This document shows positions 44,322 to 60,700 of a stretch of DNA of 64,000 nucleotides, piece after piece (position 1 is the first letter of the stretch; every line of letters begins with the position of its first letter). The position numbers and the translations under genes are program-made. The notes under the pieces are model-generated. The model saw only the letters and a list, made by a program, of their open reading frames with translations. It had not been told where the DNA came from and searched no databases. The DNA is from Flavobacteriales bacterium. Lineage in GTDB: Bacteria > Bacteroidota > Bacteroidia > Flavobacteriales_F > PHOS-HE28. The stretch is taken from assembly GCA_030584065.1 (NCBI GenBank), contig CP129489.1:2709497-2773496 (forward strand), read 5' to 3'.

Positions 44322-44960
44322 ATGGTGCCGGCACGCGTTCCGCCTCCGCTGCGCTGGCTCCTGCCCGGGGCCATGTGGCGGATGCGCACCGAGGAGCGCG
44401 TGCTCTTCCTCACCTTCGATGACGGCCCCCTGCCGGGCCTCACACCCTGGGTTCTGGACACGTTGCGCGCGCATCGTGCCAAGGCCACCTTCTTCATGCT
44501 GGGGCGGAACGCCTCTGCGCATCCGGGCATCGTGCAGCAAGTCCGGGATGAGGGGCACGGCATCGGCAATCACACCTGGAGCCACCCCGATGGATGGCGC
44601 ACAACCACGGATGCTTACCTCGCCGATGTGGAGCGTGCCCGTGCCTGCACCGGGTCCAGCCTGTTCCGGCCTCCATACGGACGGATCGGTGCGCGTCAGT
44701 TCAAGGCGCTCCGTTCGCGCTACCAAGTGGTGATGTGGGATGTGCTCAGCGCCGACTACGACTCCCGGCTCAGCCCCGGGCGCTGCCTGCACCGGGTGAC
44801 CGCTGCCGCGCGCCCGGGATCGATCATCGTCTTCCACGACAGCCTGAAGGCCGAGCGCCTGCTCCGCGCCACCCTGCCGGCCGCGCTCGACCGGCTGTCC
44901 GGCATGGGCTACCGCTTCCTGCGCCTGCCGGAACCCGGCCCTACGGCGCTACCGAAGTGA
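44322..44960 (+). CDS. Polysaccharide deacetylase (NodB-homology, CE4)
   Basis: 212 residues. LFLTFDDGPLPGLTPW (about residues 28-43) has the catalytic base Asp and metal Asp, HTWSHPDGWR the zinc-binding His pair, RPPYGRIG the third motif, and SIIVFHDS the catalytic His. CE4 enzymes remove N-acetyl groups from peptidoglycan, chitin or biofilm glycans. There is no signal peptide, so the site of action is unclear. It begins 14 bp after the GT117 gene, so they may share a transcript, and overlaps the PorE-like gene by 20 bp on the other strand. Confidence 0.9.
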   Translation: MVPARVPPPLRWLLPGAMWRMRTEERVLFLTFDDGPLPGLTPWVLDTLRAHRAKATFFMLGRNASAHPGIVQQVRDEGHGIGNHTWSHPDGWRTTTDAYLADVERARACTGSSLFRPPYGRIGARQFKALRSRYQVVMWDVLSADYDSRLSPGRCLHRVTAAARPGSIIVFHDSLKAERLLRATLPAALDRLSGMGYRFLRLPEPGPTALPK

Positions 44961-47145
44961 CCGTGTATTCCACGCGCCGGTTCACGGCATGCTCCTCCTC
45001 CGTGCATTGCACGCCGGGGGCGCAGTGGTTCAGCAGCCGCGAGGCGCCGAAGCCGCGCGCCTTCACGCGGTCCTTGGCGATGCCCTTGCCGGTGAGGTAG
45101 GCGGCAATGGCGTCCGCCCGCACCTGGCTCAGGGCCTGCTCCTCCTGCAGGTCGCCGCGCGCATCGGCGTGGACGCCCACCTCGATCGCCACACCCGGAT
45201 TCACGCCCAAGCGTTCCGCCAGCGCATCGAGCTCGCCCTTGGCCGCGGGATCGAGCTGCGCGCTGCGATCACGCCACCGGATGTGCCGGAAGGCGATGGG
45301 CTGGCCGACGACGACCTCCTCCAGCTCAAGGTCACGGGCCTGGCCAAGGTCGATGATACCGTGCCGCATGCCGATGGTGGAGATCGGAATGCTGAGGCTG
45401 AAGTAGCCGGTCTTCTCGATGAGCACCTCGAAGTCCTCGTTGGTCTGCAGGCGCATGGACACGTCCCCGCCCTCGCCGGTGGTGCGGCAATCGGAGCTGA
45501 AGCTGCTTAGGTTCACTGCGCACACCTTGGCTCCGGCCACGAACCCGGGCCGCCCCTTGATGCGCACCGCGCCGCGGAGCCACACCCCGGCATCGCTCAC
45601 CAGGTGGATGTCGCGCGATGCGATGAGCTCCCGTTCGATGCGCTCGGTGCTCAGGTGCTGCTCCCCTTCGAAACGGCCCTTCATGCGCGCGGTGATGCGG
45701 TAGGTGCGTCCCTGCCGCACGCTGAAGGTGTACTCCCCCTTCGCATCGGTGGTGGTCGTCGCCACCAGGCCGCCATCCAGCTCGTAGAGGCTCACCTCGG
45801 CATCGCTCACGGGCATCTCCAGCTCATCGTCGATCACCCGCCCGGTGCACAGGTAGCGCTCCTCCAGCGGAGCGAGCATCTCAAAGGCGTAGATGTCGTC
45901 GTCACCGGCGCCGCCCGGGCGATTGCTGGTGAAGAAGCCGCGCTTGCCGGCCGCATCGATGATGAAGGCGAAATCATCTCGGGGCCCATTCACGGGAGCG
46001 CCCAGATTGAGTGCGCCGACGAAACCGCCATCGGTGCCTGCGGTTGCGCGCAGGATGTCCAGTCCGCCGAGCCCCGGGTGGCCGTTGCTGGCGAAATACA
46101 GGCTGCCGTCGGCGGCCACGAAGGGGAAGACCTCGTTGAACGGCGTGTTTATGGCGGGGCCCAGGTTGCGGGGCTCGCTCCATTGCCCGTCGACCAGGTC
46201 GCAGGCATAGAGGTCGGTGCCGCCCTGCCCGCCGGGCATGTCGCTTGCGAAATAGAGCCGCTTCCCGTCGGGCGAGAGCGCGGGGTGCCCGATGGACACC
46301 TCGCTGTTGTTGTAGAGGAACTGCTCCTCCGCCCCGTACCCCGTGCCCGTTCGGCGTGCCTGGAAGATGGCCAGCCTACTGATGCCCCGCTGGCTGCGGC
46401 GCGTGCGGCCTTTGAAGTAGTTGTTGCGCGTGAACCAGATGACATCGCCGCCGGTGCTGGCCGTGGCGGGCCCCTCATGGTAGCGCGTGTTCACCGTTCC
46501 GGCCAGGGGCGCCACATTCGCCAGGTCGCCGGTCGGGGTCACATCGGCGGTGAAGAGGTCAAGGAAGGGCTGCGCGTTCCATGCCGCACGGCGCTCGATG
46601 ATGCCAGTGCCCTGGCGCGATGAGCTGAAGACCACCCGGCCCTCCCCCAGCCATGCGGCGGCGAGGTCGGGGCCCGCGGTGTTGATGGCCGCGCGCCTCA
46701 CATTGAAGCGGTCCTGATCCATCATGAGCTTCCGGGCGAAGAGCGCGATGTTGCTCCGCAGCTCACTCCCTTCGGGCCGCACAAGCGCCAGGTAGCGGTC
46801 CATCCATTGCTCGGCCTCCTCGTAGCGTCCATTGGCCTTCAAGGCCTCCGCGTACCGGTACAGGTCGATGGGCTCACGGTTTAGGAACTTCACCACCACG
46901 GCGTACCAGCGCTCCGCCTCCACCATGTCGCCCAGCCGCATGCTGCAATCCGCCAAGCGCTTGGTGACATGCTCGTTGACGGCACCGAGCTCAGCGGCCG
47001 TGCGGTAGAGCTCGGCGGCACGGGCATAGGCCATCTGCTGGTAGTGGCGGTCGGCCTCGCGGATGAAGGGATCCGCATTGCCCTGCCCGCGCACGGCGGC
47101 GGTGATCAGCAACAGCAGGAGCAGGGAGGCGATGCGGGCAACCAT
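44941..47145 (-). CDS. PorE-like OmpA-family protein (TPR, PD40 propeller, CRD, OmpA-C)
   Basis: 734 residues. Signal peptide about 1-20 (ending VRGQG). TPR-like helices follow at about 25-135 (ADRHYQQMAYARAAELYRTA). A PD40/WD40-like propeller (about 150-420) has GHPALSPDGKRLYFASDMPG and GSLYFASNGHPGLGGLDILR. A carboxypeptidase-regulatory-like domain (about 425-520) comes next, and an OmpA C-terminal domain (about 620-734) has VGVHADARGDLQEEQALSQV and NRRVEYTV, the peptidoglycan-binding Asp and Arg region. This order matches PorE of Porphyromonas gingivalis, a peptidoglycan anchor linked to PorP in the T9SS. It starts 2 bp after the SprF-like gene. Confidence 0.9.
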   Translation of the reverse strand: MVARIASLLLLLLITAAVRGQGNADPFIREADRHYQQMAYARAAELYRTAAELGAVNEHVTKRLADCSMRLGDMVEAERWYAVVVKFLNREPIDLYRYAEALKANGRYEEAEQWMDRYLALVRPEGSELRSNIALFARKLMMDQDRFNVRRAAINTAGPDLAAAWLGEGRVVFSSSRQGTGIIERRAAWNAQPFLDLFTADVTPTGDLANVAPLAGTVNTRYHEGPATASTGGDVIWFTRNNYFKGRTRRSQRGISRLAIFQARRTGTGYGAEEQFLYNNSEVSIGHPALSPDGKRLYFASDMPGGQGGTDLYACDLVDGQWSEPRNLGPAINTPFNEVFPFVAADGSLYFASNGHPGLGGLDILRATAGTDGGFVGALNLGAPVNGPRDDFAFIIDAAGKRGFFTSNRPGGAGDDDIYAFEMLAPLEERYLCTGRVIDDELEMPVSDAEVSLYELDGGLVATTTTDAKGEYTFSVRQGRTYRITARMKGRFEGEQHLSTERIERELIASRDIHLVSDAGVWLRGAVRIKGRPGFVAGAKVCAVNLSSFSSDCRTTGEGGDVSMRLQTNEDFEVLIEKTGYFSLSIPISTIGMRHGIIDLGQARDLELEEVVVGQPIAFRHIRWRDRSAQLDPAAKGELDALAERLGVNPGVAIEVGVHADARGDLQEEQALSQVRADAIAAYLTGKGIAKDRVKARGFGASRLLNHCAPGVQCTEEEHAVNRRVEYTVTSVAP

Positions 47146-47147
47146 GG

Positions 47148-48068
47148 CTAGAAGTAGCGCGGCGATACCGTCCGCCCGGTGAAGAAGCGCAGGTCGTAGT
47201 TCAGCATCACCTCGTGCGTGCCGCCGTTGTACGCCCCGATGCTGGTGGTGGTGAGGTCGAAGGCATAGCCGATCCGGAACTGATCATTGACCTGGTACTG
47301 CCCGAGGAGGCCGAAGCTGTTGCCCACGCGGTACATGCCTCCGAGCCAGATGCGGTCGCGGAAGAGGAAGTTCGCGTTGAGGTCGATGGAGAGCGGCGCG
47401 CCATTCACCATGCGCACCATCACCGAAGGCCGGAAACGGGTGCTGCGATCGATATCGATCACATAGCCGCCGACAAGGAAGTAGTGCCGGCGCTCCGCCG
47501 CCGTGACGATGCCCGCGGCCTGCACCGCATCGATGTCGTTCTCGAGGAGCTTGGGCGCGCTGAGTCCAGCATAGAAGCGCGGCCCGTGCCAGTAGAGACC
47601 GAAGCCGAAATTGGGCAGGGCCTTGCCCGCGATGCTGACATTCGCCTGGTCGGGGTCCACGGAACTGAGCGATGCCAGATCGGCCTGGTACAGGTTGGCG
47701 CCCCCCTTGAGCCCGAAGGCCAGGCGCGACGACTTGCCGGTGCGGATGCGGTAGGCGAAATCGACATAGCCGCCCGTCTGCCGCGTCGGGCCCACCTTGT
47801 CGTTCAGCAGGGAAAGCCCCATGGCCATGCTGCGGGCCGGCAGGGGTGTATGCGCCAGCACCGTCTGGGTGGCGGGCGCTCCGGTGAAGCCGACCCATTG
47901 ATGGCGGCTCAGCGCCATGACGGTGAAGATGTCGGCGCTGCCCGCATAGCCCGGGTTCACCGCCAGCGTATTGAACATGTACTGGCTGTACAGCGGATCC
48001 TGCTGCGCGCGTGCCTGGAGCAGGGCGGCCGTGGCGAAGCCAAGGAGGAGCGTGCGCGCGGCGTTCAT
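47148..48068 (-). CDS. PorP/SprF-family outer-membrane protein (partner of the 31-repeat giant)
   Basis: 306 residues, the usual length. A signal peptide (about 1-21, ending LQARAQQ) is followed by DPLYSQYMFNTLAVNPGYAGS, the conserved start of PorP/SprF, and a beta-barrel ending in NYDLRFFTGRTVSPRYF. SprF-like proteins help deliver type B CTD substrates such as SprB to the surface. The ATG overlaps the stop of the giant gene (ATGA), so expression is coupled, and the PorE-like gene follows after 2 bp. Confidence 0.92.
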   Translation of the reverse strand: MNAARTLLLGFATAALLQARAQQDPLYSQYMFNTLAVNPGYAGSADIFTVMALSRHQWVGFTGAPATQTVLAHTPLPARSMAMGLSLLNDKVGPTRQTGGYVDFAYRIRTGKSSRLAFGLKGGANLYQADLASLSSVDPDQANVSIAGKALPNFGFGLYWHGPRFYAGLSAPKLLENDIDAVQAAGIVTAAERRHYFLVGGYVIDIDRSTRFRPSVMVRMVNGAPLSIDLNANFLFRDRIWLGGMYRVGNSFGLLGQYQVNDQFRIGYAFDLTTTSIGAYNGGTHEVMLNYDLRFFTGRTVSPRYF

Positions 48069-51000
48069 CGGTTGAGGTAGATGAATCCGGTGATGGCCTC
48101 CCTGCCGGCGCCCAGTTCCAGCACGTAGAAATACGTGCCGGCCGGAGCGGTTCCGTAGGACGAGGTGCCGTCCCACACCACGTTGCGGTTGTCGTAGCCG
48201 CTCGCCTCGTACATCTTCCCGCCCCATCGGTTGAAGATCACGAGCGTGTTGGCGGGGTAGCCTTCGATCCCGGGGATGAGCAGCCGCTCGTTCACCCCAT
48301 CGCCGTTGGGCGAGAAGCTTTCCGGCACGAAGACCGGCTCGGTGAATGCGCACGGACTGCCGCCAGCAACGCGCACCGCATTACAGCCATACTGGTCGCG
48401 CACGAAGGCCTCGAAATCCTCGCTGGTGAACAAGGGCTCGCTGGTGAACGTGTAGGGGGCCTCCGTGGTGATAGCGCCCGGCAGGCCGCTGACCACGTAG
48501 GTCGCCGGATCGCCGGAGGCGATCACGAAGCTCACCGTGTAGGTCCGGTCGCGCTCGATGCACGTCCGCACAGGCTCCGACACCTCCACGCCGACCACCA
48601 CGTTCACCTTCACCAGGGCCGTTGCGTCACTGCAGCCCGGCACGGAGACGGTGTAGCGGTAGTAGTACTCGCCTGCCGGGATGGCGGTGGTGTTGAGGAA
48701 CCCGCCCGTGAGGCCGCCGGTGCCGTTGAGGTCCTCCCAGGAGCCGCCCGCCTGCGGAGCACCCTGCAGCCCTGCGAAGAGATCCAGCGCCTCCACGGTG
48801 TCGCAAGCCAGCAGTTCGCCGTTGCTGCCGGGATCCGGCGGAGCATTCACGGTGATGGTCACCACCGCCGTGGCATCGGCGCACGGTGCGGTGCCCGCAA
48901 CGGTATAGGTGTAGCTGCCCGGGGCATCCGTGCCGGGAATGAAGCTGCCGCTGTGAGCCTGTCCGCCGGGGTTCGTCCAGCTGCCACCGCTGTCGGGGCC
49001 GCCATCCAGCTGACCGAAGAGGTCAATCGCATCGGAGGTGGAGCAAAGGGTGAGGCTCGTGCCCGTGCCCGCCACCGGGAACGGAGCCGCCGTCACGAGC
49101 ACAACTGCGGAAACGGTTCCGCAGCCGGCGTCCTCGATCGTGTACACGAAGGGCGATGCGCCGCCGATTGGCAACAGGCCGACGTTCAACACCCCGCCTG
49201 CCCCGAGGGCGCCGGTACCGGTTGGGTCGGTCCAAGTGCCTCCGGGAAGGGGCGACCCACCCAGCGCATTGAACAGGTCGTAGGCTCCCAAATTGCCGCA
49301 AAGCACCAGCGTGCTATCCGTTCCAGCGCTGCTGCCCACGCCCACCTGAACCGTCACGTTGGCGGAGGAGCTCTGGCAGGGCGCAAGGCCGGTGACCGTG
49401 TAGGTGAACCCCCAGCTGCCGTTGCCGGCTGCGGATGGGTTGAACAGGCTGCCCGCGAGCGCGCCGGATCCATTGTTGTCCGTCCATGTGCCGCCGCCCT
49501 GCGCACTGGGGCCGAGTGCAGCGAAGAGGTCCACCTCCGTCTGCGTCTGGCAGGCCTGTATCGTCGCGCTCTGACCGGCGTTGGTTGCCGGGTTCACGGC
49601 GATGGTGACCTCGGCGCTGTCGTTCGGGCAGGGCGCAGTTCCCGTCAGCCGGTAGCGGTACACGCCGGGGGAATGGACGGCCGGATTGAACTGATTGCCG
49701 TGTGGGGTGCCGCCAGCGGTGACATTGATCCAGGAGCCGCCGGTCTGGGGCACGCATCCGAGCAGTGTAAGGAGCGGAACGGACGATCCATTGGAGCACA
49801 ATGTTGCAGAGGCATCGCAGCCGGCGTCCGGGGCCTGCGGCTCGGTCACCGTCACGTTCGCGAAATCGTCGGCGCACGGTGGTATACCAAGGACACGATA
49901 GCGATAAGTGCCTGGCGCATCCACGGCGGGGTTATAGGTGCCCGAGTGCGGGGTGGGCGTGCCGCCGCCCTGCGGCGTGAAGGTCCACGTGCCACCGGAC
50001 TGGGCGCTGGCCCCCAAGAGCGTGAAGAGCACCACGGGCGAATCGATGGAGCAGATGGCGATACCCGTGTCATTGCCCGCGTTCGGCGGCTGAGTCACCG
50101 CAGCCGTCACGGTCGCGGTATCCGCGGGGCATACGCCGCTCCCGCTCACCACGTAGTAGTAGGCACCGCTGCCGAAGGAGGGTAGGAATACGCCGTTGAC
50201 CACAGGCTGCCAATTCTGATTGAACCACGTGCCGCCAGCGTCCGGATCGCCGGAGAGCGCTGTGCCCAGGTTGATCGGCGGTGAATTCGCACAGACGGAG
50301 AGGGGGCCGCCGTTGCCGGCGAAGGGGCCGCTGATCACCTCCACTGTCACGCGGGCGGTATCCCCATCGCATTGCGGCAGCGAGGGCAGCACGTAATCGA
50401 AGCGCCATGTGGTGCCCGCTGGAACCGCCGCGGTGTTGAATAGACCAGCCGCATTGAAGCCCGGGGCATTGTCCTGGTTCTGCCAGGCCCCTCCGGGCTG
50501 GGGCGCTCCGCCCAAGGCATCGAACAGGTCGAGCAGGTCGCCGCGGCAGGCCTGCAGCGCGATGTCATCCCCGGCATCGAGCGCGCCCACGATGATCAGA
50601 CTTACCGATGCGCTCGTTGCGGGGCAAGGCCCATCGGCCGCATGCAGGTAGGTGAAGCCGCAGCCCTGCCCATCCACCAGCGCGCTTGCGTCATAGACCC
50701 CATTGGTGAGGGTGCCCAGGCCGCAACCGTTGATCCATGCGCCACCGGGCGTCACCGTGCCGCCAAGGCCGCTCACCAGCGCGATGGCGGACGCCCCTTC
50801 GCACGCAGTAATGGAACCATCCGTGCCGGCAAGGGCTTGCTGCGTGATCGTGATGGAGACGGAAGCGCTGGCATCCGGGCAGGGAGCGATTCCGGCCACA
50901 GTGTAGGTGTAGATGCCCTGAGGGTCGCTCTCCGGGTTGATGAAGGGCGGAACCTCCGTATTGCCGAAGGTCCAAGTGCCGTTCGCATCAGGCGTGCCCG

Positions 51001-54000
51001 CTAGCAGGCCGATCAAGGAGGTGAGCCCCTGGCTGCTGCAAAGCGCGCCGATGGTGGCGATGCCCGGTTCGGGCGCCGCGCTCTCGAACACCGTCACCGT
51101 GGCGCTATCGCTGGCGCAGGGCCCTTGGCCGACCACTTTGTACTTGTATGGGCCGGGGTCGGAGGTGCCGGGGATGTAGGTGCCGCTCACCACGCCACCC
51201 GATGGGTCGTACCATGCGCCGCCGGGATCCGGTGTACCGAGGAGAAGGTCGAAGAGCTGGAACTGGGGCGCATTGCTGCACACTTGAACCTGTCCGTTCC
51301 CGCCCGCATCCACGGCATCGAACAGCAGCACGGTCACATAGGCCGAGTCGGGGCCGCAGCCGGCATTCCCCGCCAGTCGGTACTTGTACGAACCGCTGCC
51401 ATCGGTCATCGGATTGAAGATGCCCGTGTGCGGCGCGCCCTGCGGGTTGAACCACAACCCTCCCGGCTCCGCCCCGCAGCCGAGGCTGGCGAAGAGGATG
51501 AAGGGCTGCGCATCGCTGCAGACCTGCACCAGTCCATCGCATCCCGCATTCGGCTCATCGAAGAGCTGCACGCTCACGATGGCTGAATCGGCGGCGCAGG
51601 GGCCGTTCGCGGCATGTCGGTACACATAGCTCCCCGCAGCGGCGATACTGGGCTGGATGGTGCCCGAGTGCGGCGTGACACTGTTGTAGAACCAGCTGCC
51701 GCCCGCCTGCGCCGTAGGCCCCAGCAAGGGGAAGAGGGGTGCGGCGCCCGCCGTTCGGCAGAGCGACAGGCTGCTGTTCGCGCCGGCCTCCAGCCGCTGC
51801 GTCACATTCACGGTGAGGTCGGCGGTCGCACTCGGGCAGGCTCCGTTGCCCGGCACGGTGTAGCGATAGGTGCCAGGTGCCGTGGCCCCCGGCGTGAAGA
51901 CCCCGTTCATGCCGGCGGTGGAAGGCAAGGGGCCCGACCAGGATCCGTTGGCCGCTGGCGCGCATCCCAAGAGGTCCGCCATGCCGAAGGCGGCATCGTT
52001 GCTGCATTTGAAGATTGATGCGCTGCAGCCCGCGTTCGAGGGATCGCTCACCTGTACGCTCACCGTGGCGCTAGCGCTGCCGCAGCCCGGCACGGTGACC
52101 GTGTAGGTGTAGACGCCTGCGGCGGAAACCCCCGGCACGAAGAGGCCGCTGAAGGGCGGATTGCCGGGTGCCGGGCCCACCCAGGTGCCGAAGGGGCTCG
52201 GCGCGCAGCCCAGGTAGTTGATCAACGGTACACCGGGGCTGCCGGGCAGTGCGCAGAAGGAGGCATTGCCGGGACAGCCCGCATTGGGCGAGGGCGTCTC
52301 GAACACGCTCACGATGGACGTGTCATTGGCGCAAGGCGGGTTTCCGGGCACGATGTAGCGGTAGTCGCCCTGCAGGCTCGTGCCGGGCGTGTAGGCCCCC
52401 GAGAGGTGCGGCGCCAGGTTGGGGTCGAGCCAGAAGCCCCCGAAATCCGGGTTGCACGTCAGCAGCGGGAAGAGCTGGAACTGGGGCGCCGTGCTGCAAG
52501 CTGTGAATCCGCTGTTGCAGCCGGCGTTGGCCCGGTTGGTCACGCTCACTGTGAGGAAGGAGGAAACGGGCTGGCATGGCGCCTGTCCCGTGACCCGGTA
52601 CTCATACACCCCTTGCGCATCGAGCCCCGGCACGAACGTGGGGCCGTGCGGCACGCTGTTGAAGAACCACTGCCCACCCGCATCGGGCGTGCCGTTCAGC
52701 GAGGCCGTCATATTGAAGGGCGCATCGCTGCTGCATTTCTGCACCGAGTTGGGAAGCCCGGCATCGGGCCCTTCCACCTCCGTCACCGTCACCGCAGCCC
52801 ATACCGTGCTGCACGGCGCACCCTGGTTGAAGACATAGTAGAAGATGCCTGCGTTGTCGGTGGCGGGCGTGTAGGACCCGCTGAAGCTGGGTCCGGCAGG
52901 TGTATTCCTGCGCCACTGACCGCCCGGCTGCGGGCTGCAACCCAGGTAGGCGATCAGGCTCTGGGGCTGGCCCAGCGTACTGCAGAAGGTCACGGCTCCA
53001 TCGCAGCCTGGGTTCGCCGCAGCGGTCACGTTCACGGTCACCGTGGCGGAATCCGCCGCGCAGCTGAGCGCCCCGGTGAGTCGGTACCGGAATGCGTAGG
53101 TGCCCGGCGCGGACACCTGCGTGGCGTTGAAGGACTGCCCGGTGAGCGCGCCCGTGCCGCTGAGGTCGATCCATAGCCCACCGGGCTGAGGGGTGCCGCC
53201 CAGCCCGCTGAAGAGGTTCACCGCGCTGTTGCTGCTGCAAGCCGGAAGCGTGCCGCTGGTGCCCGCATCGAGCAGCGCGACGATCACCACCGTGGCATTC
53301 GACTCATCGGCAGCGCAGCCGCCGATTCCCGGAACCTCATACCGGAACGTGTACGTGCCAGGCGGCAGGGCTGCGGTGTTGAAGAAGCTGCCGGCGAGCT
53401 GCCCCGTGGGCGTGCCCTGTTCCGTCCATGTGCCGGTGAGGTCGAATGGTGCAGTGATCACGCTGAAGAGATCGACGCTCGGGGTTCCTTGGCAAATGGT
53501 GATGCTGCCGTCACCTCCTGCGTTCGGTGCCTGGTTGACCACCACGGTCACCGTGGCGCTGGAATCCGCGCAGGGGGCGGTGCCCGCCACGGTATACACA
53601 TAATCACCCGGGAGATCGGTGCCGGGCGTGAAGACGCCGGAGGGGATGCTCGATGGCCCGCTCCAGGTCCCTCCCGTCTGCGGCGTGCCGCCCAACTGGC
53701 CGAAGAGGTTTACCGGCGGCGCATTCGAGCAGCGCGTAACGGTCGCATCGGTGCCCGCATTGGGGCGCTGCGTCACGCTCACGGTCACCACCGCGGTGGC
53801 ATTGAGGCAGGGGGTCAGGCCCTGAACGGTGTAAGTGTAGCCGCCCGCCGCGCTCTGGCCCGGTGTGAAGATGCCGCTGTGCGGGGTGCCGTTGGGGCGC
53901 GTCCACTGCCCGCCTGCATCGGGCGTGCCGCCCAGCACGCCGATCAGGGGAAATGCGGCATCCGTGCTGCACACCACGGTGGAGGCGTTGGTGCCCGCAT

Positions 54001-56614
54001 TCGGCGCCTGGTTCACCACCACGGTCACCGTGGCGGAATCATTCGCGCACGGTGCCGTGCCCGGCACCACGTAGGTGTAAGTGCCGGCCGGCGTGATGCC
54101 GGGGGTGAAGGTGCCGCTCACCGGCTGGTTCGTTGCGTTGAGCCAGAAACCGGTGCCATTGGGGTTGCCACCCAGCGCCGTGAGCATATCGAAAGGCCCA
54201 TTGGTGCTGCACACGGTGATGGTGCCGTTCGTGCCGGCATTCGGCGCGATCACGCGGTTCACCTGTACCACGGCGCTGAGCGGGCCGCAAGGCGTCGTGC
54301 CCGCCACGGTATAGGTGTAATTCCCGCCGGCTTGGGTGCCGGGGAGGTAGGTGCCGCTATGGGGCGCACCTCCCGGGGCGGTCCACGTTCCTCCCGGCTG
54401 CGGGCTTCCGCCCAGCAAGGCGAAGAGATTCACCGGGGCATCACTGCTGCAGACGGTGATGCTGCCATTGGTGCCGGGGTTCGGCGGAGCCACCACGCCA
54501 ACAGTGACCGTGGCGATGGCGGGGGCGCAGGGCGCCAGACCGGTCACGGTGTAGGTGTAGACGCCGGCGGGACTGGTGCCCGGGGTGAAGATGCCGGTGC
54601 TTGCCCCGCCGCCTGGCGCAGTCCAAGTGCCGGTCGTCCAAGGCGAACCGCCGAGCTCATCAATCAGGTCGAAATCGGCCGCGTTCGCGCACACGGTGCG
54701 GCTGCCATCGGTGCCGGCCTGCGGTGCGGGGTTCACCGTCACGTTCACGGTGGCGCTGGCGTTGGCGCACGGGGCGAGGCCGAGCACCGTGTAGGTGTAG
54801 GCGCCGGCGGGGTCGCTGGCGGGATTGAAGGTGCCGCTATGCGCACCCAGCGGCCCGGTCCAGGTACCGCCCGCCTGGGGCGATCCCCCGAGCAAGCCGA
54901 AGAGGCTGAAGGACGCATCGTTGGAGCAGACCGTGGTGCCTGCCCCAGTTCCGGCGTTTGGTGCCGTGTTCACGGCCACCGTCACCGTGGCGCTGCTGGG
55001 GGCGCAGGGCGGCAGGCCGGTTACCGTGTAGGTGTAGGCCCCGGTCGCACTTGTGCCCGGAATGAAAATGCCGGAATGCACGGCATTGCTGGGGTCGCGC
55101 CAAGTGCCCCCCACATTCGGGGTACCCCCCAAGGCGCTGAAAAGGTTGAAGCTGCCATCGGTGGTGCAGAGCGTGATGCTCCCGTTGGTCCCGGCACTCG
55201 GGCGCTGGCGCACGGTGATGGTGAGGGTGGCGCTGGCATTGGCGCAAGGGCCGGTACCGGCCACCGTGTAGGTATAGGCGCCGGCGGGGTCCACAGCGGG
55301 ATTGAACTGATCGCCATGGGCGCCAAGCGGCCCCAACCAGGTTCCGCCCGCATCGGGCGACCCGAGCAGCTGACCGACCATGGAGAAGGGTGCATCATCG
55401 CTGCAGACCGTGATGCTGCGCGAGATGCCGGCATTGGGCGCCGGGGTCTGCAGCACGGTAACGGTGGAGATGGCGGCCGGGCAGGGCGGCAGACCGGGCA
55501 CCGTGTAGGTGTACACACCGGGCGTGCTGGTGCCGGGCGTGTAGGTGCCGCTGACAGGAGCGCCGCCGGGGCCGGTCCATGCGCCGGTGAGCTGCGGGCT
55601 GCCGCCGAGGATGCCGATGAGCGCGAAGGGGGCGCCGTTGCTGCACACGCTGGTGGAGCCGCTGGTACCTGCATTGGCCGGGGGATTCACCGTCACGATC
55701 ACCGTGGCAGAGGCGTTCGCGCAGGGCGGTGCGCCCATCACGGTGTAGGTGTAGGTGCCCGCAGGGTCCACTGCGGGATTGAAGGTGCCGCTGTGCGGTC
55801 CGTTGGGACCTGACCACGTGCCGCCGGCATCGGGGGTGCCGCCGAGGAAGTTGATGAGGGCAGCAGAGGCCCCGGTGGCGCAGAAGGTGGCAGTGCCGTT
55901 GGTGCCCGCGCTAGGTGCCAGAACCCGGGTCACCGTGACGGCAGCGCTGGCATCCGGACAGGGAGGCGCGCCTGCATGGGTATAGGTATAGGTACCCCCG
56001 GGGTCGATGGCCGGATTGAGTGTTCCGCTGTGGGAAGCGCCCCCTGGTGCGGTCCAGGACCCACCGGGGTCGGGCAGGGCTCCCAACAGGCTGAAGAGGT
56101 CCAGCGTCGGGCCGCTGGAGCAGACTGTAGCGCTGCCTGCCGTGCCTGGCCAAGGGGTGGTCACGATCCGCGCCTGCCAGCCGGCGGCCGTTCCGCTGCC
56201 ATCGCTCTGGAAACGGAAGGTCAGGCAACCGGTGGCGTCCGTGGCGGTAAAGGTCTGCCCGGCGAGCGAGGTGATGCTGGTGCCAGTGGCCAGCAGCGTG
56301 CCGCCGGTGGTTGCTCCGTCAAACACCTCCAAACGGTCGCCAGGCGGCGGTCCGCCGGCCAGGTCCCACGTGATGAACCGTACCGCTGTGAATGGGCCTG
56401 CGCCCGGGCCGCCCGTGGGGCAGATGGTGATCGTGACATCGAGGTTGCTAGCGTAGTTGCCGCCCGCACCGCCCGAGTCATAGAAACTCGCCGAGCACGA
56501 CTCGAACTGCTGGTCCTGGTCGGCGATGCAATCCTGGGCCTGGGCCGTCCGGGGCACCAACGCAAGCGCCGCCAGCAGGAGGGCTGAAAAGGCCAGGGTC
56601 AATCTCGGCTGCAT
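48065..56614 (-). CDS. Giant secreted adhesin: CUB-like domain, 31 Cys-repeats, T9SS type B domain
   Basis: 2849 residues from the ATG at 56614 (MQPRLTLAF), chosen for its signal peptide (about 1-27, ending TAQAQD). Residues 28-156 are CUB-like (CSASFYDSGGAGGNYASN, DRLEVFDG). Residues 157-2678 hold 31 repeats of 79-85 residues. Consensus: GT(N/D)G then CS, LxLLGGxPxxGGxW, SGxFxPG, GxYTYTVxGxxPC, SAxVTV. Each has two conserved Cys. Some units carry an extra pair. The last 171 residues include CHU_C/type B features: ESFSPNGDGVNERL, VIFNRWGGKMYE, WDGTSSYGTAPAGTYFYVL. It is probably a long surface fibre for adhesion or gliding; ligand unknown. Frame is intact throughout. Confidence 0.88.
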   Translation of the reverse strand: MQPRLTLAFSALLLAALALVPRTAQAQDCIADQDQQFESCSASFYDSGGAGGNYASNLDVTITICPTGGPGAGPFTAVRFITWDLAGGPPPGDRLEVFDGATTGGTLLATGTSITSLAGQTFTATDATGCLTFRFQSDGSGTAAGWQARIVTTPWPGTAGSATVCSSGPTLDLFSLLGALPDPGGSWTAPGGASHSGTLNPAIDPGGTYTYTHAGAPPCPDASAAVTVTRVLAPSAGTNGTATFCATGASAALINFLGGTPDAGGTWSGPNGPHSGTFNPAVDPAGTYTYTVMGAPPCANASATVIVTVNPPANAGTSGSTSVCSNGAPFALIGILGGSPQLTGAWTGPGGAPVSGTYTPGTSTPGVYTYTVPGLPPCPAAISTVTVLQTPAPNAGISRSITVCSDDAPFSMVGQLLGSPDAGGTWLGPLGAHGDQFNPAVDPAGAYTYTVAGTGPCANASATLTITVRQRPSAGTNGSITLCTTDGSFNLFSALGGTPNVGGTWRDPSNAVHSGIFIPGTSATGAYTYTVTGLPPCAPSSATVTVAVNTAPNAGTGAGTTVCSNDASFSLFGLLGGSPQAGGTWTGPLGAHSGTFNPASDPAGAYTYTVLGLAPCANASATVNVTVNPAPQAGTDGSRTVCANAADFDLIDELGGSPWTTGTWTAPGGGASTGIFTPGTSPAGVYTYTVTGLAPCAPAIATVTVGVVAPPNPGTNGSITVCSSDAPVNLFALLGGSPQPGGTWTAPGGAPHSGTYLPGTQAGGNYTYTVAGTTPCGPLSAVVQVNRVIAPNAGTNGTITVCSTNGPFDMLTALGGNPNGTGFWLNATNQPVSGTFTPGITPAGTYTYVVPGTAPCANDSATVTVVVNQAPNAGTNASTVVCSTDAAFPLIGVLGGTPDAGGQWTRPNGTPHSGIFTPGQSAAGGYTYTVQGLTPCLNATAVVTVSVTQRPNAGTDATVTRCSNAPPVNLFGQLGGTPQTGGTWSGPSSIPSGVFTPGTDLPGDYVYTVAGTAPCADSSATVTVVVNQAPNAGGDGSITICQGTPSVDLFSVITAPFDLTGTWTEQGTPTGQLAGSFFNTAALPPGTYTFRYEVPGIGGCAADESNATVVIVALLDAGTSGTLPACSSNSAVNLFSGLGGTPQPGGLWIDLSGTGALTGQSFNATQVSAPGTYAFRYRLTGALSCAADSATVTVNVTAAANPGCDGAVTFCSTLGQPQSLIAYLGCSPQPGGQWRRNTPAGPSFSGSYTPATDNAGIFYYVFNQGAPCSTVWAAVTVTEVEGPDAGLPNSVQKCSSDAPFNMTASLNGTPDAGGQWFFNSVPHGPTFVPGLDAQGVYEYRVTGQAPCQPVSSFLTVSVTNRANAGCNSGFTACSTAPQFQLFPLLTCNPDFGGFWLDPNLAPHLSGAYTPGTSLQGDYRYIVPGNPPCANDTSIVSVFETPSPNAGCPGNASFCALPGSPGVPLINYLGCAPSPFGTWVGPAPGNPPFSGLFVPGVSAAGVYTYTVTVPGCGSASATVSVQVSDPSNAGCSASIFKCSNDAAFGMADLLGCAPAANGSWSGPLPSTAGMNGVFTPGATAPGTYRYTVPGNGACPSATADLTVNVTQRLEAGANSSLSLCRTAGAAPLFPLLGPTAQAGGSWFYNSVTPHSGTIQPSIAAAGSYVYRHAANGPCAADSAIVSVQLFDEPNAGCDGLVQVCSDAQPFILFASLGCGAEPGGLWFNPQGAPHTGIFNPMTDGSGSYKYRLAGNAGCGPDSAYVTVLLFDAVDAGGNGQVQVCSNAPQFQLFDLLLGTPDPGGAWYDPSGGVVSGTYIPGTSDPGPYKYKVVGQGPCASDSATVTVFESAAPEPGIATIGALCSSQGLTSLIGLLAGTPDANGTWTFGNTEVPPFINPESDPQGIYTYTVAGIAPCPDASASVSITITQQALAGTDGSITACEGASAIALVSGLGGTVTPGGAWINGCGLGTLTNGVYDASALVDGQGCGFTYLHAADGPCPATSASVSLIIVGALDAGDDIALQACRGDLLDLFDALGGAPQPGGAWQNQDNAPGFNAAGLFNTAAVPAGTTWRFDYVLPSLPQCDGDTARVTVEVISGPFAGNGGPLSVCANSPPINLGTALSGDPDAGGTWFNQNWQPVVNGVFLPSFGSGAYYYVVSGSGVCPADTATVTAAVTQPPNAGNDTGIAICSIDSPVVLFTLLGASAQSGGTWTFTPQGGGTPTPHSGTYNPAVDAPGTYRYRVLGIPPCADDFANVTVTEPQAPDAGCDASATLCSNGSSVPLLTLLGCVPQTGGSWINVTAGGTPHGNQFNPAVHSPGVYRYRLTGTAPCPNDSAEVTIAVNPATNAGQSATIQACQTQTEVDLFAALGPSAQGGGTWTDNNGSGALAGSLFNPSAAGNGSWGFTYTVTGLAPCQSSSANVTVQVGVGSSAGTDSTLVLCGNLGAYDLFNALGGSPLPGGTWTDPTGTGALGAGGVLNVGLLPIGGASPFVYTIEDAGCGTVSAVVLVTAAPFPVAGTGTSLTLCSTSDAIDLFGQLDGGPDSGGSWTNPGGQAHSGSFIPGTDAPGSYTYTVAGTAPCADATAVVTITVNAPPDPGSNGELLACDTVEALDLFAGLQGAPQAGGSWEDLNGTGGLTGGFLNTTAIPAGEYYYRYTVSVPGCSDATALVKVNVVVGVEVSEPVRTCIERDRTYTVSFVIASGDPATYVVSGLPGAITTEAPYTFTSEPLFTSEDFEAFVRDQYGCNAVRVAGGSPCAFTEPVFVPESFSPNGDGVNERLLIPGIEGYPANTLVIFNRWGGKMYEASGYDNRNVVWDGTSSYGTAPAGTYFYVLELGAGREAITGFIYLNR
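48581..56146 (-). repeat. Array of 31 protein repeats (79-85 residues each)
   Basis: Counted by hand from the conserved unit start (Gly followed by the CS and W-G motifs) to the end of unit 31. Units are 79-85 residues and clearly homologous but diverged, so this is old duplication rather than recent expansion. Units 14, 16, 17, 18, 20 and 27 begin GC and also have a Cys in the LG(C) position. Confidence 0.9.
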
Positions 56615-56652
56615 CACTCCCACGCGCAACGGGCCACGCCCGAAAAGGGGCG

Positions 56653-56660
56653 GCAAGGTA
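56653..56660 (-). promoter_or_regulatory. Promoter box of the giant 31-repeat gene (TACCTTGC)
   Basis: TAnnTTGC variant, 38 bp before the ATG at 56614. It makes the giant gene a transcription unit of its own. Confidence 0.4.
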
Positions 56661-56689
56661 CTGAGATCGCCCCGGGGCAGGGCAAGGGA

Positions 56690-56724
56690 AATGCCCACGG
56701 CCGTAGGCATTATCGACGATAATG
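56690..56724. promoter_or_regulatory. Two overlapping dyad symmetries upstream of the giant gene
   Basis: A hairpin AATGCC / GGCATT (56690-56711, inner ACGGCCGT palindrome) overlaps the 17-bp dyad CATTATCGACGATAATG (56708-56724) by four bases. The two stems are mutually exclusive. They sit between sprF1 and the promoter at 56653-56660 and could form an operator or attenuator-like element. Confidence 0.35.
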
Positions 56725-56787
56725 GTGATGCGGTCGACGAAATCCGAGGGTGCCGGCACGCCGGGAGGCCTCACGGACCGCAGCCCG

Positions 56788-57708
56788 CTACGGTGCAGGC
56801 TGCGCGCCAGCCGCCGGGCGGCCCAGCGTGATGGCCAGGGTCACCTCGTGCGTGCCCGTGCTGTAATTGCGCAGGTTGCTGGTGATCACATCGTAGGAAT
56901 AGCCGAACTGGAACTGCTGCTTGTGCCAGTACCCGATGGTGGCGCTCCACGCGTCGTTGGTGCGGTAGCCGGCGCCGAGCCAAACCGTGTTCCGGTAGCG
57001 CATGAGCAGGTTCACGTCCACCTTCATCGGCACCGGCGCAACGTACTTGACCATGAAGGACGGCTCCAGCCTGAAGTCCTCGCCCAAGGGCAGCCGATAG
57101 CCGCCCATCGCATAGTAGTGGCGCTCCATGCGGCTCAGCGTTCCCGTGTTCTCGTGCAGGAATACCACCTCGTTGTTCAGCAGCTGCGGCGCGGCGGCGC
57201 CCACCCACCAGTTGGGATGGTAGAGCAGGAAGGAGAAGGTGGCATCCGGCTTCAGTTCACCGCGCAGTTGGTCGTCCATGATGGGGTCGCCGGGGTCGCG
57301 GAACTGGATCTTGGATCCATCGATGAGGAATTGGAGCAGCCCGCCGGAGAGGGCCATGCCCAAACGGATGTCCTCCGTGAGCCGCAGGTGGTAGGCCCAG
57401 GAAAGCTGCACGCCGGTGCGCCGCGTGGGGCCCACGATGTCGGTGAAGAGGTAGCCGCCGAGGCCCATTTTGGCGCCCAGCGGCGAGGAGGCGCTGAGGG
57501 TGAAGGTGCGCGGCGCATCCTGCACCCCCACCCATTGGTAGCGGTGCCCGGTGCGCAGCTCGAAGAAAGGCCGGCTGCCAGCGACGGCCTGGTTGAAGAT
57601 GTAATCGTTGAGCACGTACTGCGTGAGCTGCGGCAGCTGTTGGCCATGGCCCTGCAGCACGGCCATGCCCACCGCTGCGGAAAGGAGGAAGTGGCGAAGG
57701 GTCTTCAT
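56788..57708 (-). CDS. PorP/SprF-family outer-membrane protein (partner of the SprB-repeat giant)
   Basis: 306 residues. Signal peptide about 1-22 (ending LQGHGQQ), then LPQLTQYVLNDYIFNQAVAG, the family start, then RTGHRYQWVGVQDAPRTF and a C-terminal barrel. Same family as the gene at 47148-48068 but clearly diverged from it. It starts 4 bp after the stop of the SprB-repeat gene, so the pair is probably co-transcribed. In Flavobacterium johnsoniae SprF is needed for SprB surface delivery; the role here follows by analogy. Confidence 0.92.
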   Translation of the reverse strand: MKTLRHFLLSAAVGMAVLQGHGQQLPQLTQYVLNDYIFNQAVAGSRPFFELRTGHRYQWVGVQDAPRTFTLSASSPLGAKMGLGGYLFTDIVGPTRRTGVQLSWAYHLRLTEDIRLGMALSGGLLQFLIDGSKIQFRDPGDPIMDDQLRGELKPDATFSFLLYHPNWWVGAAAPQLLNNEVVFLHENTGTLSRMERHYYAMGGYRLPLGEDFRLEPSFMVKYVAPVPMKVDVNLLMRYRNTVWLGAGYRTNDAWSATIGYWHKQQFQFGYSYDVITSNLRNYSTGTHEVTLAITLGRPAAGAQPAP

Positions 57709-57712
57709 GGCA

Positions 57713-60700
57713 TCAGCGGATCACGGTGAGCGGACCAGTGAAGGCGTCGGGGAAGCGCGGATCGTTGAGCTTCACCACGTAGTAGTAGGTGCCCACGGGC
57801 ACGAAGCCGCCGTTGTAGCGCCCATCCCAAGGCGTCCTGTAGCCCACGCTGCGGAAGAGCAGCTCACCCCAGCGGTTGTACACCTCCACCTCGCTCTCCG
57901 GGAAGAGGTCGATGAAGTCGATCACCCAGGCATCGTTCCAGCCGTCGCCGTTGGGCGTGAATCCGTTGGGGATGACCACCTCGGGCACTACGGTCACCAG
58001 CACCGAGTCGAGCGCCACGCAGCCATTCGGGGCGGTGACAAGCACGGTGAACCAGGTGGTCGACGGCGGGTCGGCCACGGGGTCGGGCACCGTGGCGCTG
58101 CTAAGCAGCGAATCGGGCGACCAGAGGAACACCGCTCCTTGCGGGCCGGTGGGCGAACCGCCCAAGGTGGCCGTGCCGCTGAGGAAGATGGTCTGGTCCG
58201 GGCCGGCGTCGGCGATGGGCAGGTCGAGAACGGTCACGGTCACCGCATCGCTGTCCGTGCATGGGCCGTCGGCCACGATCAGCGTGAAGGTGTAGGAGCC
58301 GTTGGCCAGGCCCGGGAGGGCGAGCACCGGATCGGTGCCGATGACGTCGCCCTGGTCATCGAGCCACTGATAGGTGAGGGCACCTGTGCTCTGCGATCCG
58401 TCCAGCGTGATGGCCACGCCGAAGCACTCGGTGAGGTCCGCCCCGGCATCCGCCACCACCGTGCTGAGCGCGGCCACCGTGACCTGCTGCGTGATGGTGC
58501 ATCCGTTCGCATCCGTGACGGTGATCGAATAGTCACCCGGTGCGAGGCCGCTGATGTCCTCGTCGGTTGACGCGAAGCCGCCGGGACCCGACCATGCGGT
58601 TTCGTAGGCGGGTGTGCCGCCGCCAATGGTCACGGCGACGGCGCCATCAGCGGCATCGGCGCAGCTGGCGTCGGTGACCTGGTCCACGTTGAGCGACAGC
58701 GGCGACGGCTCGTTGATGGCATAGGTGAAGGTGAATGAACAGCCCACATCGTCACCGATGATCACCTGCCAGGTGCCCGGGCACAGGCCGGTGGCGGAAT
58801 CGTTGCCCTGGCCGTTCGGCGGCACCGGGCTCCAGTTGTAGGTGAAGTTGCCGATGCCGCCCGTCGGGCTGAGCACGATGCTGCCATCGCAGGCCGCATT
58901 GCACTGCACGTCGGTCACCGCGGCGTTGTCCGCGATGTCGGTGTAGGGCAGCACGGTGAACGTGTAGGTGGTGTCGCAGCCCAGCGCATCGGTGATGGTG
59001 ACGCTGTTGTCACCGGCGCAGAGGCCCGTCACCTGTTCGGTGCCTTGTCCGGTGCCGGGCTCCGGCGACCAGGAGATGGTGAATGGCCCGGTGCCGCCGC
59101 TCGGCGCAATGGCGGCTGTTCCATCGCAGGGACCGAAACAGGTCTCGTTGGTCCAAGTGAGGTTGGCCTCGATCGCATCGCCCTGCGTGATGGTGAAGGG
59201 GGCGTTGATGGTGCAGCCATTGGCATCGGTCACCTCCAGGCTGTAGTCGCCCGCACACAGCGCACCGAGGTCCGGCACATCCTGCGCAACGATGCTCCCG
59301 GCCCCGTCGCGCCAGATGAGCGTGTAGGGCGCAGCGCCGCCGCTCACCACCGAGGTAGCGGTCCCTGTGCAATCGCCGAAGCAGATGTTGTCCGTGGTGG
59401 CCACCTGGACCTCGAGCAGCGGCGGATCCGTGATGGCGAAAGTGGCGGAGGTCGTGCATCCGTTGCCGTCGGTGACGGTCACCGTCCAGTCGCCCGCGCA
59501 GAGGCCGGTGATCGCCGGCAGCGTGGGGTCGCCCCCCGGCTCCGGCGACCAGCTGTAGGCATAGGGCTGAGTGCCGCCGCTGGCGTCTGCCGTGATGGCA
59601 CCATCGCACGCGCCGTTGCAGGTGATGGGCACAATGGTGCCCGCCACGGCCAATGGTTGAGGCTCGGTGATGAGCACGTCCTGCGTGATGCTGCAGCCCG
59701 CCTGGTCCGTGATGGTGATGCTGTAGGCGCCGGCGCACAGGTCCGTCACCTGCGGCATGTCCTCACCGCCGGGGGCCCAGAGGAACACGTAGGGGGCCTG
59801 CCCGCCCGTGGGGCCTACCGTGGCCGATCCGTCGCAAAGGCCCGCGCAGGAGACGGCCGTGGTGCCGAGGTTGGGCACGATCGGGTCGGGCTCGGTAACG
59901 AAGGCCGTATCGATGGTGATGCAGCCCAGGCCATTCGTGACCTGCACCAGGTAGAGGCCTGCGCAGAGCCCGGTGGCGGTGCTGCCCGTCTGCCCGAGGT
60001 CGGTGCCCGATGCATCGAACCAGGCGATGGAGCACAGCGGCTCCGCACAGGTGAAGTCAACGCTCGCCGTACCGTCGCAATCACCGGGGCAGCTGGTGAT
60101 CCCATCGGCAAGGGTGAGCTGCTCCCCGTCGGTATCGCTGATGGCCACGAGCACCGTATCCGCGCAGAGGTTGGCATCCGCGACGATGGCCTGATAGAAG
60201 CCCGCGCAGAGTCCGCTGATGCTGTCCCCCGTGCCGATGATGGCTCCGCCGCTCAGCCAGGTGGTGAAGTAGGACGCTGTGCCGCCGACCGGCGCAGCGG
60301 CCGCCGTGCCGTTGCAGACCCCGCACGCGCTCTCGGTGACGGTGATGACCGCCTGCACGGGTGCGGGCTCGACGAGCACGAAATCCTCTGCGAGGATGCA
60401 ACCGCCGGCATCGGTCACGGTCAGCGTCCAGGTGCCGGGGCAGAGTCCGCTGATGGCATTGGTGCCCTGGCCGGCCGGGGGCTCAGGTGACCAAGCGTAG
60501 GCGTATGGGGCTACGCCACCGGTGACGGCCGCCGTGATGGCCCCGTTGCAGTCGCCCGCGCACTGCACCTCCTGCACCGTGGCCGTCACCGCCAGGGGCT
60601 GCGGCTCGGTGATGAGCACCTGCACGGTGGTGTCGCACTGCGAAGCGTCGCTGATGAGCACGGTGTAGACGCCGGTGCACAGGCCCGTCAGCTGCGGGGT

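What the first reader, a model, noticed from the sequence alone, without database searches (positions are those of the whole stretch)
49577..53008. Co-varying extra cysteine pair in six of 31 repeats of the giant adhesin
Every repeat has two conserved Cys (the CS near the start and the PC near the end). In units 14, 16, 17, 18, 20 and 27 the second residue of the unit is also Cys (GC instead of GT, GN and so on), and exactly these six, and no others, have Cys in the middle LG(C) or LT(C) position (for example YLGCSP, LTCNP, LGCAP). Perfect co-occurrence in 6 of 6 and absence in 25 of 25 points to a second disulfide in a subset of domains. The six are clustered in the middle of the protein, so mechanical stiffness may vary along the fibre.
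Basis: seen in the sequence. Interest (0 to 1): 0.7.

Follow-up and report, generated by a model that had tools for sequence, protein, structure and literature searches.

The report
Switchable second disulfide in adhesin repeats
A giant surface protein of a Flavobacteriales bacterium is a chain of 31 similar beads, and some beads carry an extra pair of cysteines that across 45 genomes is always present or absent as a pair, which shows that the two very likely form an optional second chemical staple.

Summary
All 31 repeats of the 2,881-residue protein (window 48065-56710, minus strand) carry two invariant cysteines (profile columns 11 and 66). Units 14, 16, 17, 18, 20 and 27, and no others, also carry C4 and C25. 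Among 1,436 distinct repeats, nearly all from the same genus, 54 have both, 1,382 neither, and none has only one. The array is orthologous unit by unit; the pair needs at least 21 gains or losses on the tree of 32 orthologs, always both residues. Columns 4 and 24 are coupled even in repeats without extra cysteines (rank 4 of 2,926). In five of six AlphaFold domains (pLDDT 97), three lacking C4/C25, residues 4 and 24 are marked as bridge or strand. A second intradomain disulfide is the best reading. The stiffness idea is untested: the bond would not shorten maximal extension, and the clustering coincides with the faster-evolving half of the array. This is a very clean case of a known phenomenon.

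The parts
48065..56710 (-). giant repeat protein, 2881 aa: N-terminal region with signal-like segment, 31 Ig-like units, type B T9SS C-terminal domain
48584..56143 (-). array of 31 Ig-like repeat units, each with core Cys at columns 11 and 66
   Evidence: segmentation and alignment; profile search finds 31 units
52766..53014 (-). unit 14, extra pair C1236 (codon 53003-53005) and C1258 (52937-52939)
52286..52528 (-). unit 16, extra pair C1398 (52517-52519) and C1419 (52454-52456)
52037..52285 (-). unit 17, extra pair C1479 (52274-52276) and C1502 (52205-52207)
51791..52036 (-). unit 18, extra pair C1562 (52025-52027) and C1583 (51962-51964); modelled
51311..51550 (-). unit 20, extra pair C1724 (51539-51541) and C1745 (51476-51478); modelled
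49583..49828 (-). unit 27, extra pair C2298 (49817-49819) and C2319 (49754-49756)
50579..50833 (-). unit 23, a different extra pair C1996 (50723-50725) and C2017 (50660-50662); modelled
48068..48328 (-). CHU_C / TIGR04131 type B T9SS sorting domain (residues about 2795-2881)
   Evidence: above curated cut-offs
47148..48353 (-). PorP/SprF-family outer-membrane protein, probable cognate carrier and anchor; its C-tail has no Cys
   Evidence: PF11751, 282 bits

Best explanation
Each repeat is a two-sheet Ig-like domain held by an invariant pair of cysteines (columns 11 and 66, inferred to be the core disulfide). In a subset, a second intradomain disulfide joins residue 4, at the start of the first strand, to residue 25, in the segment it pairs with. 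The bond is optional for the fold, because the same backbone contact exists without it. Evolution switches it on and off only as a pair, because a lone extra thiol at either place is apparently short-lived or selected against. Shown here: co-occurrence, joint switching, proximity by coupling and by predicted fold. Inferred: that the disulfide forms, that it stabilises the domain and pins the N-terminal strand during or after type 9 export to the cell surface, where the protein is probably anchored by the adjacent PorP/SprF-like protein.
For: C4 and C25 co-occur 6/6 in the window, 51/51 in 1,101 units and 54/54 in 1,436 distinct units. Units are orthologous by array position (874 of 930 best hits), and eight positions carry the pair with at least 2, 2, 2, 2, 1, 4, 5 and 3 changes = 21. 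Closest switch: position 20, L132 versus L137, 78% identical, with C/C against S/G (codons TGC+TGT versus AGC+GGC). Cys-positive units within one protein are no more alike (37%) than other pairs (39%), so this is not unit copying. In units with exactly two Cys, columns 4 and 24 are the fourth strongest of 2,926 couplings (z 5.7); with all units, 4-25 ranks second (z 17.9). AlphaFold, pLDDT 97.6 and 97.0: residues 4 and 24 are marked as bridge or strand in u18, u20, u22, u23 and u24. Lone third Cys exist elsewhere (15 of 1,398 distinct units), so lone Cys are observable, yet never at 4 or 25. A type B sorting domain and an adjacent PorP/SprF gene are present.
Against: Unit 19 shows no 4/24 bridge. 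No DsbB or VKOR homolog was found in the genome, only two DSBA-family proteins, so the oxidant is unidentified. No protein chemistry exists for this organism.
Confidence: 0.88

Rival explanations
1. The pair spread by copying whole repeat units (duplication or gene conversion), so the co-occurrence reflects shared descent of one Cys-bearing unit type and not a constraint.
For: Repeat arrays often homogenise; paralogous arrays in the same genome contain runs of equally scoring units that suggest near-identical tandem copies.
Against: In this protein the array is orthologous position by position (874/930); Cys-positive units within a protein are not more alike than others (37% versus 39%); at least 21 switches are needed on the tree; close orthologs at one array position differ in state.
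Confidence: 0.03
2. The four Cys of a positive unit bind one metal ion or iron-sulfur cluster instead of forming two disulfides.
For: Four Cys per positive unit.
Against: C4 and C11 lie on one extended segment seven residues apart (strand 6-11), too far apart to share a metal site with C25 and C66 (inference); the protein carries an export signal domain; the other extra pairs in the family occur at many unrelated places.
Confidence: 0.03
3. C4 and C25 make disulfides between neighbouring domains or between fibres.
For: C4 lies near the domain boundary; some units have an unpaired third Cys conserved in a clade (column 48), which could do this.
Against: The pairing is within the same unit in all 54 distinct cases, including units with no Cys-positive neighbour (position 25 alone in many genomes); columns 4 and 24 couple within the unit in Cys-negative domains.
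Confidence: 0.05
4. The extra disulfides are placed to stiffen particular stretches of the fibre (position-specific mechanical tuning). This would be in addition to the best explanation, not instead of it.
For: Across the genus the pair occurs only at positions 14-20, 25 and 27; position 18 gains a second pair by three different routes (4/25, 16/47, 28/60); 7 of 8 gains of other pairs also fall in positions 14-28 (p 0.03).
Against: Positions 14-31 are less conserved than 3-13, which alone gives more chances; on the inferred connectivity the shortest covalent path through a domain (1-11, 66-81) is unchanged by a 4-25 bond, so maximal extension is unchanged; no force data.
Confidence: 0.25

Closest known systems
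Titin I-band Ig domains with variable cysteines (Giganti et al. 2018, PMC5766482)
   Same: Long tandem Ig array in which a subset of domains carries extra Cys that can form disulfides within the domain and affect mechanics.
   Different: In titin 24 of 101 I-band domains have a single Cys of the triad and redox-driven isomerisation is proposed; here C4/C25 is strictly all or none and adds to an invariant core pair in an exported bacterial protein.
Mobiluncus mulieris giant adhesin, 51 Ig-like domains with ester, isopeptide, disulfide and thioester cross-links (PMC10619420)
   Same: Giant bacterial Ig-array adhesin with covalent intradomain staples, one a disulfide joining strands.
   Different: Other domain families, with ester and isopeptide bonds as well as disulfides; no evolutionary on/off switching reported in the passages read.
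SprB-SprF gliding adhesin module of Flavobacterium johnsoniae (PMC12635249)
   Same: Type B T9SS adhesin with a dedicated PorP/SprF-family carrier that anchors it.
   Different: No SprB repeats in this protein (they are in the neighbouring one), and the local PorP/SprF protein lacks the Cys-X-Cys tail that joins SprF to GldK.
Grappling hook protein A (GhpA) of Aureispira (PDB 9flp and related)
   Same: Top Foldseek hits of the three-unit model; a large surface protein of a Bacteroidota bacterium (affiliation from general knowledge).
   Different: No detectable sequence match; TM-scores modest and VIA Z about 7, no better than eukaryotic Ig tandems.
Correlated cysteine mutations in disulfide-connectivity prediction (PMC3548674)
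   Same: General principle that bonded Cys pairs change together (title and abstract start seen).
   Different: Here the signal is perfect over 1,436 repeats and at least 21 switches at fixed array positions.

Membership tests
Type B T9SS substrate (CHU_C, TIGR04131) | C-terminal type B sorting domain above curated cut-off | tested here: met
   PF13585 77.7 bits (cut-off 27), TIGR04131 46.3 bits (cut-off 35):
Type B T9SS substrate (CHU_C, TIGR04131) | Cognate PorP/SprF-like carrier gene nearby | tested here: met
   PF11751, 282 bits, next gene on the same strand:
Type B T9SS substrate (CHU_C, TIGR04131) | Actual surface export and anchoring | not testable with these tools
   needs experiment
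SprB-type gliding adhesin | SprB repeats (PF13573) | tested here: not met
   absent from this protein, present in the neighbour at 57713-64000
SprB-type gliding adhesin | Carrier with Cys-X-Cys C-tail bonded to GldK | tested here: not met
   no Cys in the C-tail of the 47148-48353 product; motif definition from PMC12635249
Ig-like beta-sandwich domains | Predicted fold matches solved Ig tandems | tested here: met
   Foldseek probability 1.00 to GhpA, NCAM and titin tandems; VIA Z up to 9.6 over 217 residues
Named Pfam or NCBIfam repeat family | Curated model matching single repeat units | tested here: inconclusive
   only PF22352 K319L-like_PKD passes for the whole protein, with no single stretch passing on its own; no NCBIfam model matches the repeats
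Covarying disulfide pair | Both Cys gained and lost together | tested here: met
   54/54 distinct units, 21 or more switches
Covarying disulfide pair | Residues within bonding distance | tested here: inconclusive
   coupling 4-24 and bridge marks support adjacency; distance itself could not be read
Covarying disulfide pair | Bond chemically present | not testable with these tools
   needs mass spectrometry or a structure

The most novel reading that the evidence does not exclude
The frozen array of about 31 orthologous Ig-like domains is a position-coded fibre in which particular positions (14-20, 23-25, 27-28) are repeatedly reinforced by a second disulfide, made by different residue pairs in different species, so that local mechanical or proteolytic stability is under selection position by position.
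Probability: 0.22. Interest if true: 0.68.

Novelty: new variant of a known kind. Interest (0 to 1): 0.5.

Why it matters
It is a natural experiment on how disulfides are gained and lost. The fold is the same and the array position is the same, close orthologs exist with and without the bond, and no half-states are seen at C4/C25, while lone Cys are seen elsewhere in the same family. It gives matched domain pairs for asking what a second disulfide buys an exported fibre domain (folding, protease resistance, force). It also gives a clean data set for timing the disulfide-gain intermediate.

Tried and rejected
Whole-alignment search of genome contigs with the repeat profile failed because no stretch was conserved enough; the C-terminal domain alignment was used instead. 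The order-level search added nothing, because it covered the same 45 genomes of one genus. No class-level repeat carried C4 or C25 (93 matches, some partial). The solved-structure sequence search gave no relative (best E 0.015). Unit copying, a metal site and chance were considered and rejected. A purely positional reading was weakened by the rate difference between the array halves. DsbB and VKOR searches were negative; absence of these two models is not proof that the genome lacks an oxidation pathway.

Full report
What is there. The longest minus-strand frame of the region (48065-56710) encodes 2,881 residues. It has an N-terminal region with a signal-like hydrophobic stretch, 31 repeats of 77-85 residues, and a C-terminal type B sorting domain of the type 9 secretion system (PF13585 and TIGR04131, both above curated cut-offs). 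Downstream on the same strand lie a PorP/SprF-family gene (47148-48353) and an OmpA/PD40/TPR protein (44941-47145). Upstream is a second type B protein with SprB repeats (57713-64000, running off the window). This is the arrangement expected for a surface protein with its own carrier. The paper on SprB and SprF describes type B substrates as staying bound to a dedicated carrier (PMC12635249). The local carrier has no Cys in its tail, so the SprF-GldK disulfide link described there is not expected here.

The observation. Every unit has Cys at profile columns 11 and 66. Units 14, 16, 17, 18, 20 and 27 also have Cys at columns 4 and 25; the other 25 have neither. Within one protein this has a chance of 1.4e-6 if units are independent. 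One thing was missed: unit 23 has a different extra pair.

Relatives. The same profile finds repeats in all 45 genomes held for this genus and more weakly in other genera of the class. The genome-contig loci are nearly all Flavobacteriales or Bacteroidetes metagenome assemblies; several isolate names point to sludge and related reactors. From the fetched loci, 1,101 units and then 1,436 distinct units were aligned to the profile. C4 and C25 were both present in 54, both absent in 1,382, and never single. Among distinct units with both core Cys, 1,304 have two Cys, 79 have four and 15 have three. So a lone extra Cys can be found in this family, just never at these two columns. The 93 matches from other genera have neither.

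Independent events. A unit-level alignment of 32 orthologous proteins shows that the array is fixed: positions correspond one to one, and 874 of 930 units have their best foreign match at the same position. The pair occurs at positions 14, 16, 17, 18, 19, 20, 25 and 27 and nowhere else. On a tree built without the Cys columns, parsimony needs at least 21 changes, and in each both residues change. The closest case is position 20 of L132 and L137: 78% identical, Cys/Cys against Ser/Gly, codons TGC and TGT against AGC and GGC. Copying of units is not the reason, since Cys-positive units within a protein are 37% identical to each other and other pairs 39%.

Geometry. A three-unit model (u18-u20; mean pLDDT 97.6, 99 aligned sequences) has lone strand-or-bridge residues at position 4 and position 24 of u18 and u20. 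Direct-coupling analysis was run on 1,378 units with exactly two Cys, so no extra Cys could contribute. It places columns 4 and 24 fourth among 2,926 pairs (z 5.7), with columns 5, 7 and 6 the next partners of column 24; with all units, 4-25 is second (z 17.9). Residue 25 follows 24 directly. Together these place C4 and C25 side by side. Coordinates were not released, so the distance itself is unmeasured.

Mechanism. Most likely the two Cys form a second disulfide joining the start of the first strand to the segment it pairs with, on top of the core bond inferred between columns 11 and 66. The fold does not need it, since the contact is there without Cys. A lone thiol is presumably harmful in an exported, disulfide-bonded protein (mispairing with the core Cys), so the intermediate is brief. 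Formation of the bond is inferred. The genome has two DSBA-family proteins but no match to the DsbB or VKOR models, so the oxidant is not known.

Stiffness. With bonds 4-25 and 11-66, the shortest covalent path through a domain is residues 1-11 and 66-81 whether or not 4-25 is bonded, so maximal extension should not change; what may change is resistance to peeling of the first strand (inference from the connectivity). The clustering is real across the genus, but positions 3-13 are also better conserved (58.3%) than 14-28 (48.7%), so faster evolution is a sufficient reason for more gains there. In favour of a positional demand, position 18 obtains a second pair by three routes (4/25, 16/47, 28/60), and positions 23 and 24 by two each. 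This is suggestive only.

Comparison. Tandem Ig domains with variable disulfides are known from titin, where 24 of 101 I-band domains carry a single Cys of the triad (PMC5766482). Giant bacterial Ig adhesins with several covalent cross-links are known from Mobiluncus (PMC10619420). A survey of disulfide conservation found that for poorly conserved disulfides both Cys positions align to topologically conserved residues in only 3% of cases (PMC2628669); the present case appears to be of that rare sort. The fold is Ig-like, with GhpA of Aureispira as the top Foldseek hit, though the second aligner ranks eukaryotic Ig tandems as high or higher and no sequence relation to a solved structure was found. 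The repeat itself is not described by a Pfam or NCBIfam model that matches single units.

Verdict. It is a clean and useful example of a known kind of coevolution.

Noticed in passing
window 50579-50833 (unit 23): A different extra Cys pair (C1996, C2017), present at the same array position in four orthologous proteins (L075, L076, L096, L102); L132 and L134 have yet another pair (columns 15/49) at that position.
   Followed up: partly
L086 unit 24, L118/L137/L141 unit 23, L152 unit 22: A lone third Cys at column 48, conserved in five genomes at array position 24 with no spare Cys in neighbouring units: a candidate for an intermolecular disulfide.
   Followed up: partly
units 1 and 2 of L087, L090, L091 (also L078, L084): Unit 1 lost core Cys 11 and gained Cys 42 while unit 2 gained Cys 62; possible rearranged or interdomain bonding.
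   Followed up: no
window 48584-56143 and orthologs: The array is frozen at about 30-31 one-to-one orthologous units across the genus, whereas paralogs in the same genome (L061, L062) have runs of equally scoring units that suggest recent tandem copies.
   Followed up: partly
window 44941-64000: Row of minus-strand T9SS genes: SprB-repeat type B protein, giant Ig-like protein, PorP/SprF, OmpA/PD40/TPR; the PorP/SprF tail lacks the Cys-X-Cys motif of SprF.
   Followed up: partly
whole genome G000: No match to the DsbB or VKOR Pfam models despite more than a hundred Cys-paired domains in exported proteins; two DSBA-family proteins only. The disulfide oxidant is unidentified.
   Followed up: no
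window 56143-56710: The N-terminal region looks CUB-like by eye, but no Pfam family matches.
   Followed up: no
L147: The record is labelled Chryseobacterium gleum but carries the genus-type C-terminal domain (63% identity) and repeats, including one C4/C25 unit: likely a misnamed or mis-binned contig.
   Followed up: no
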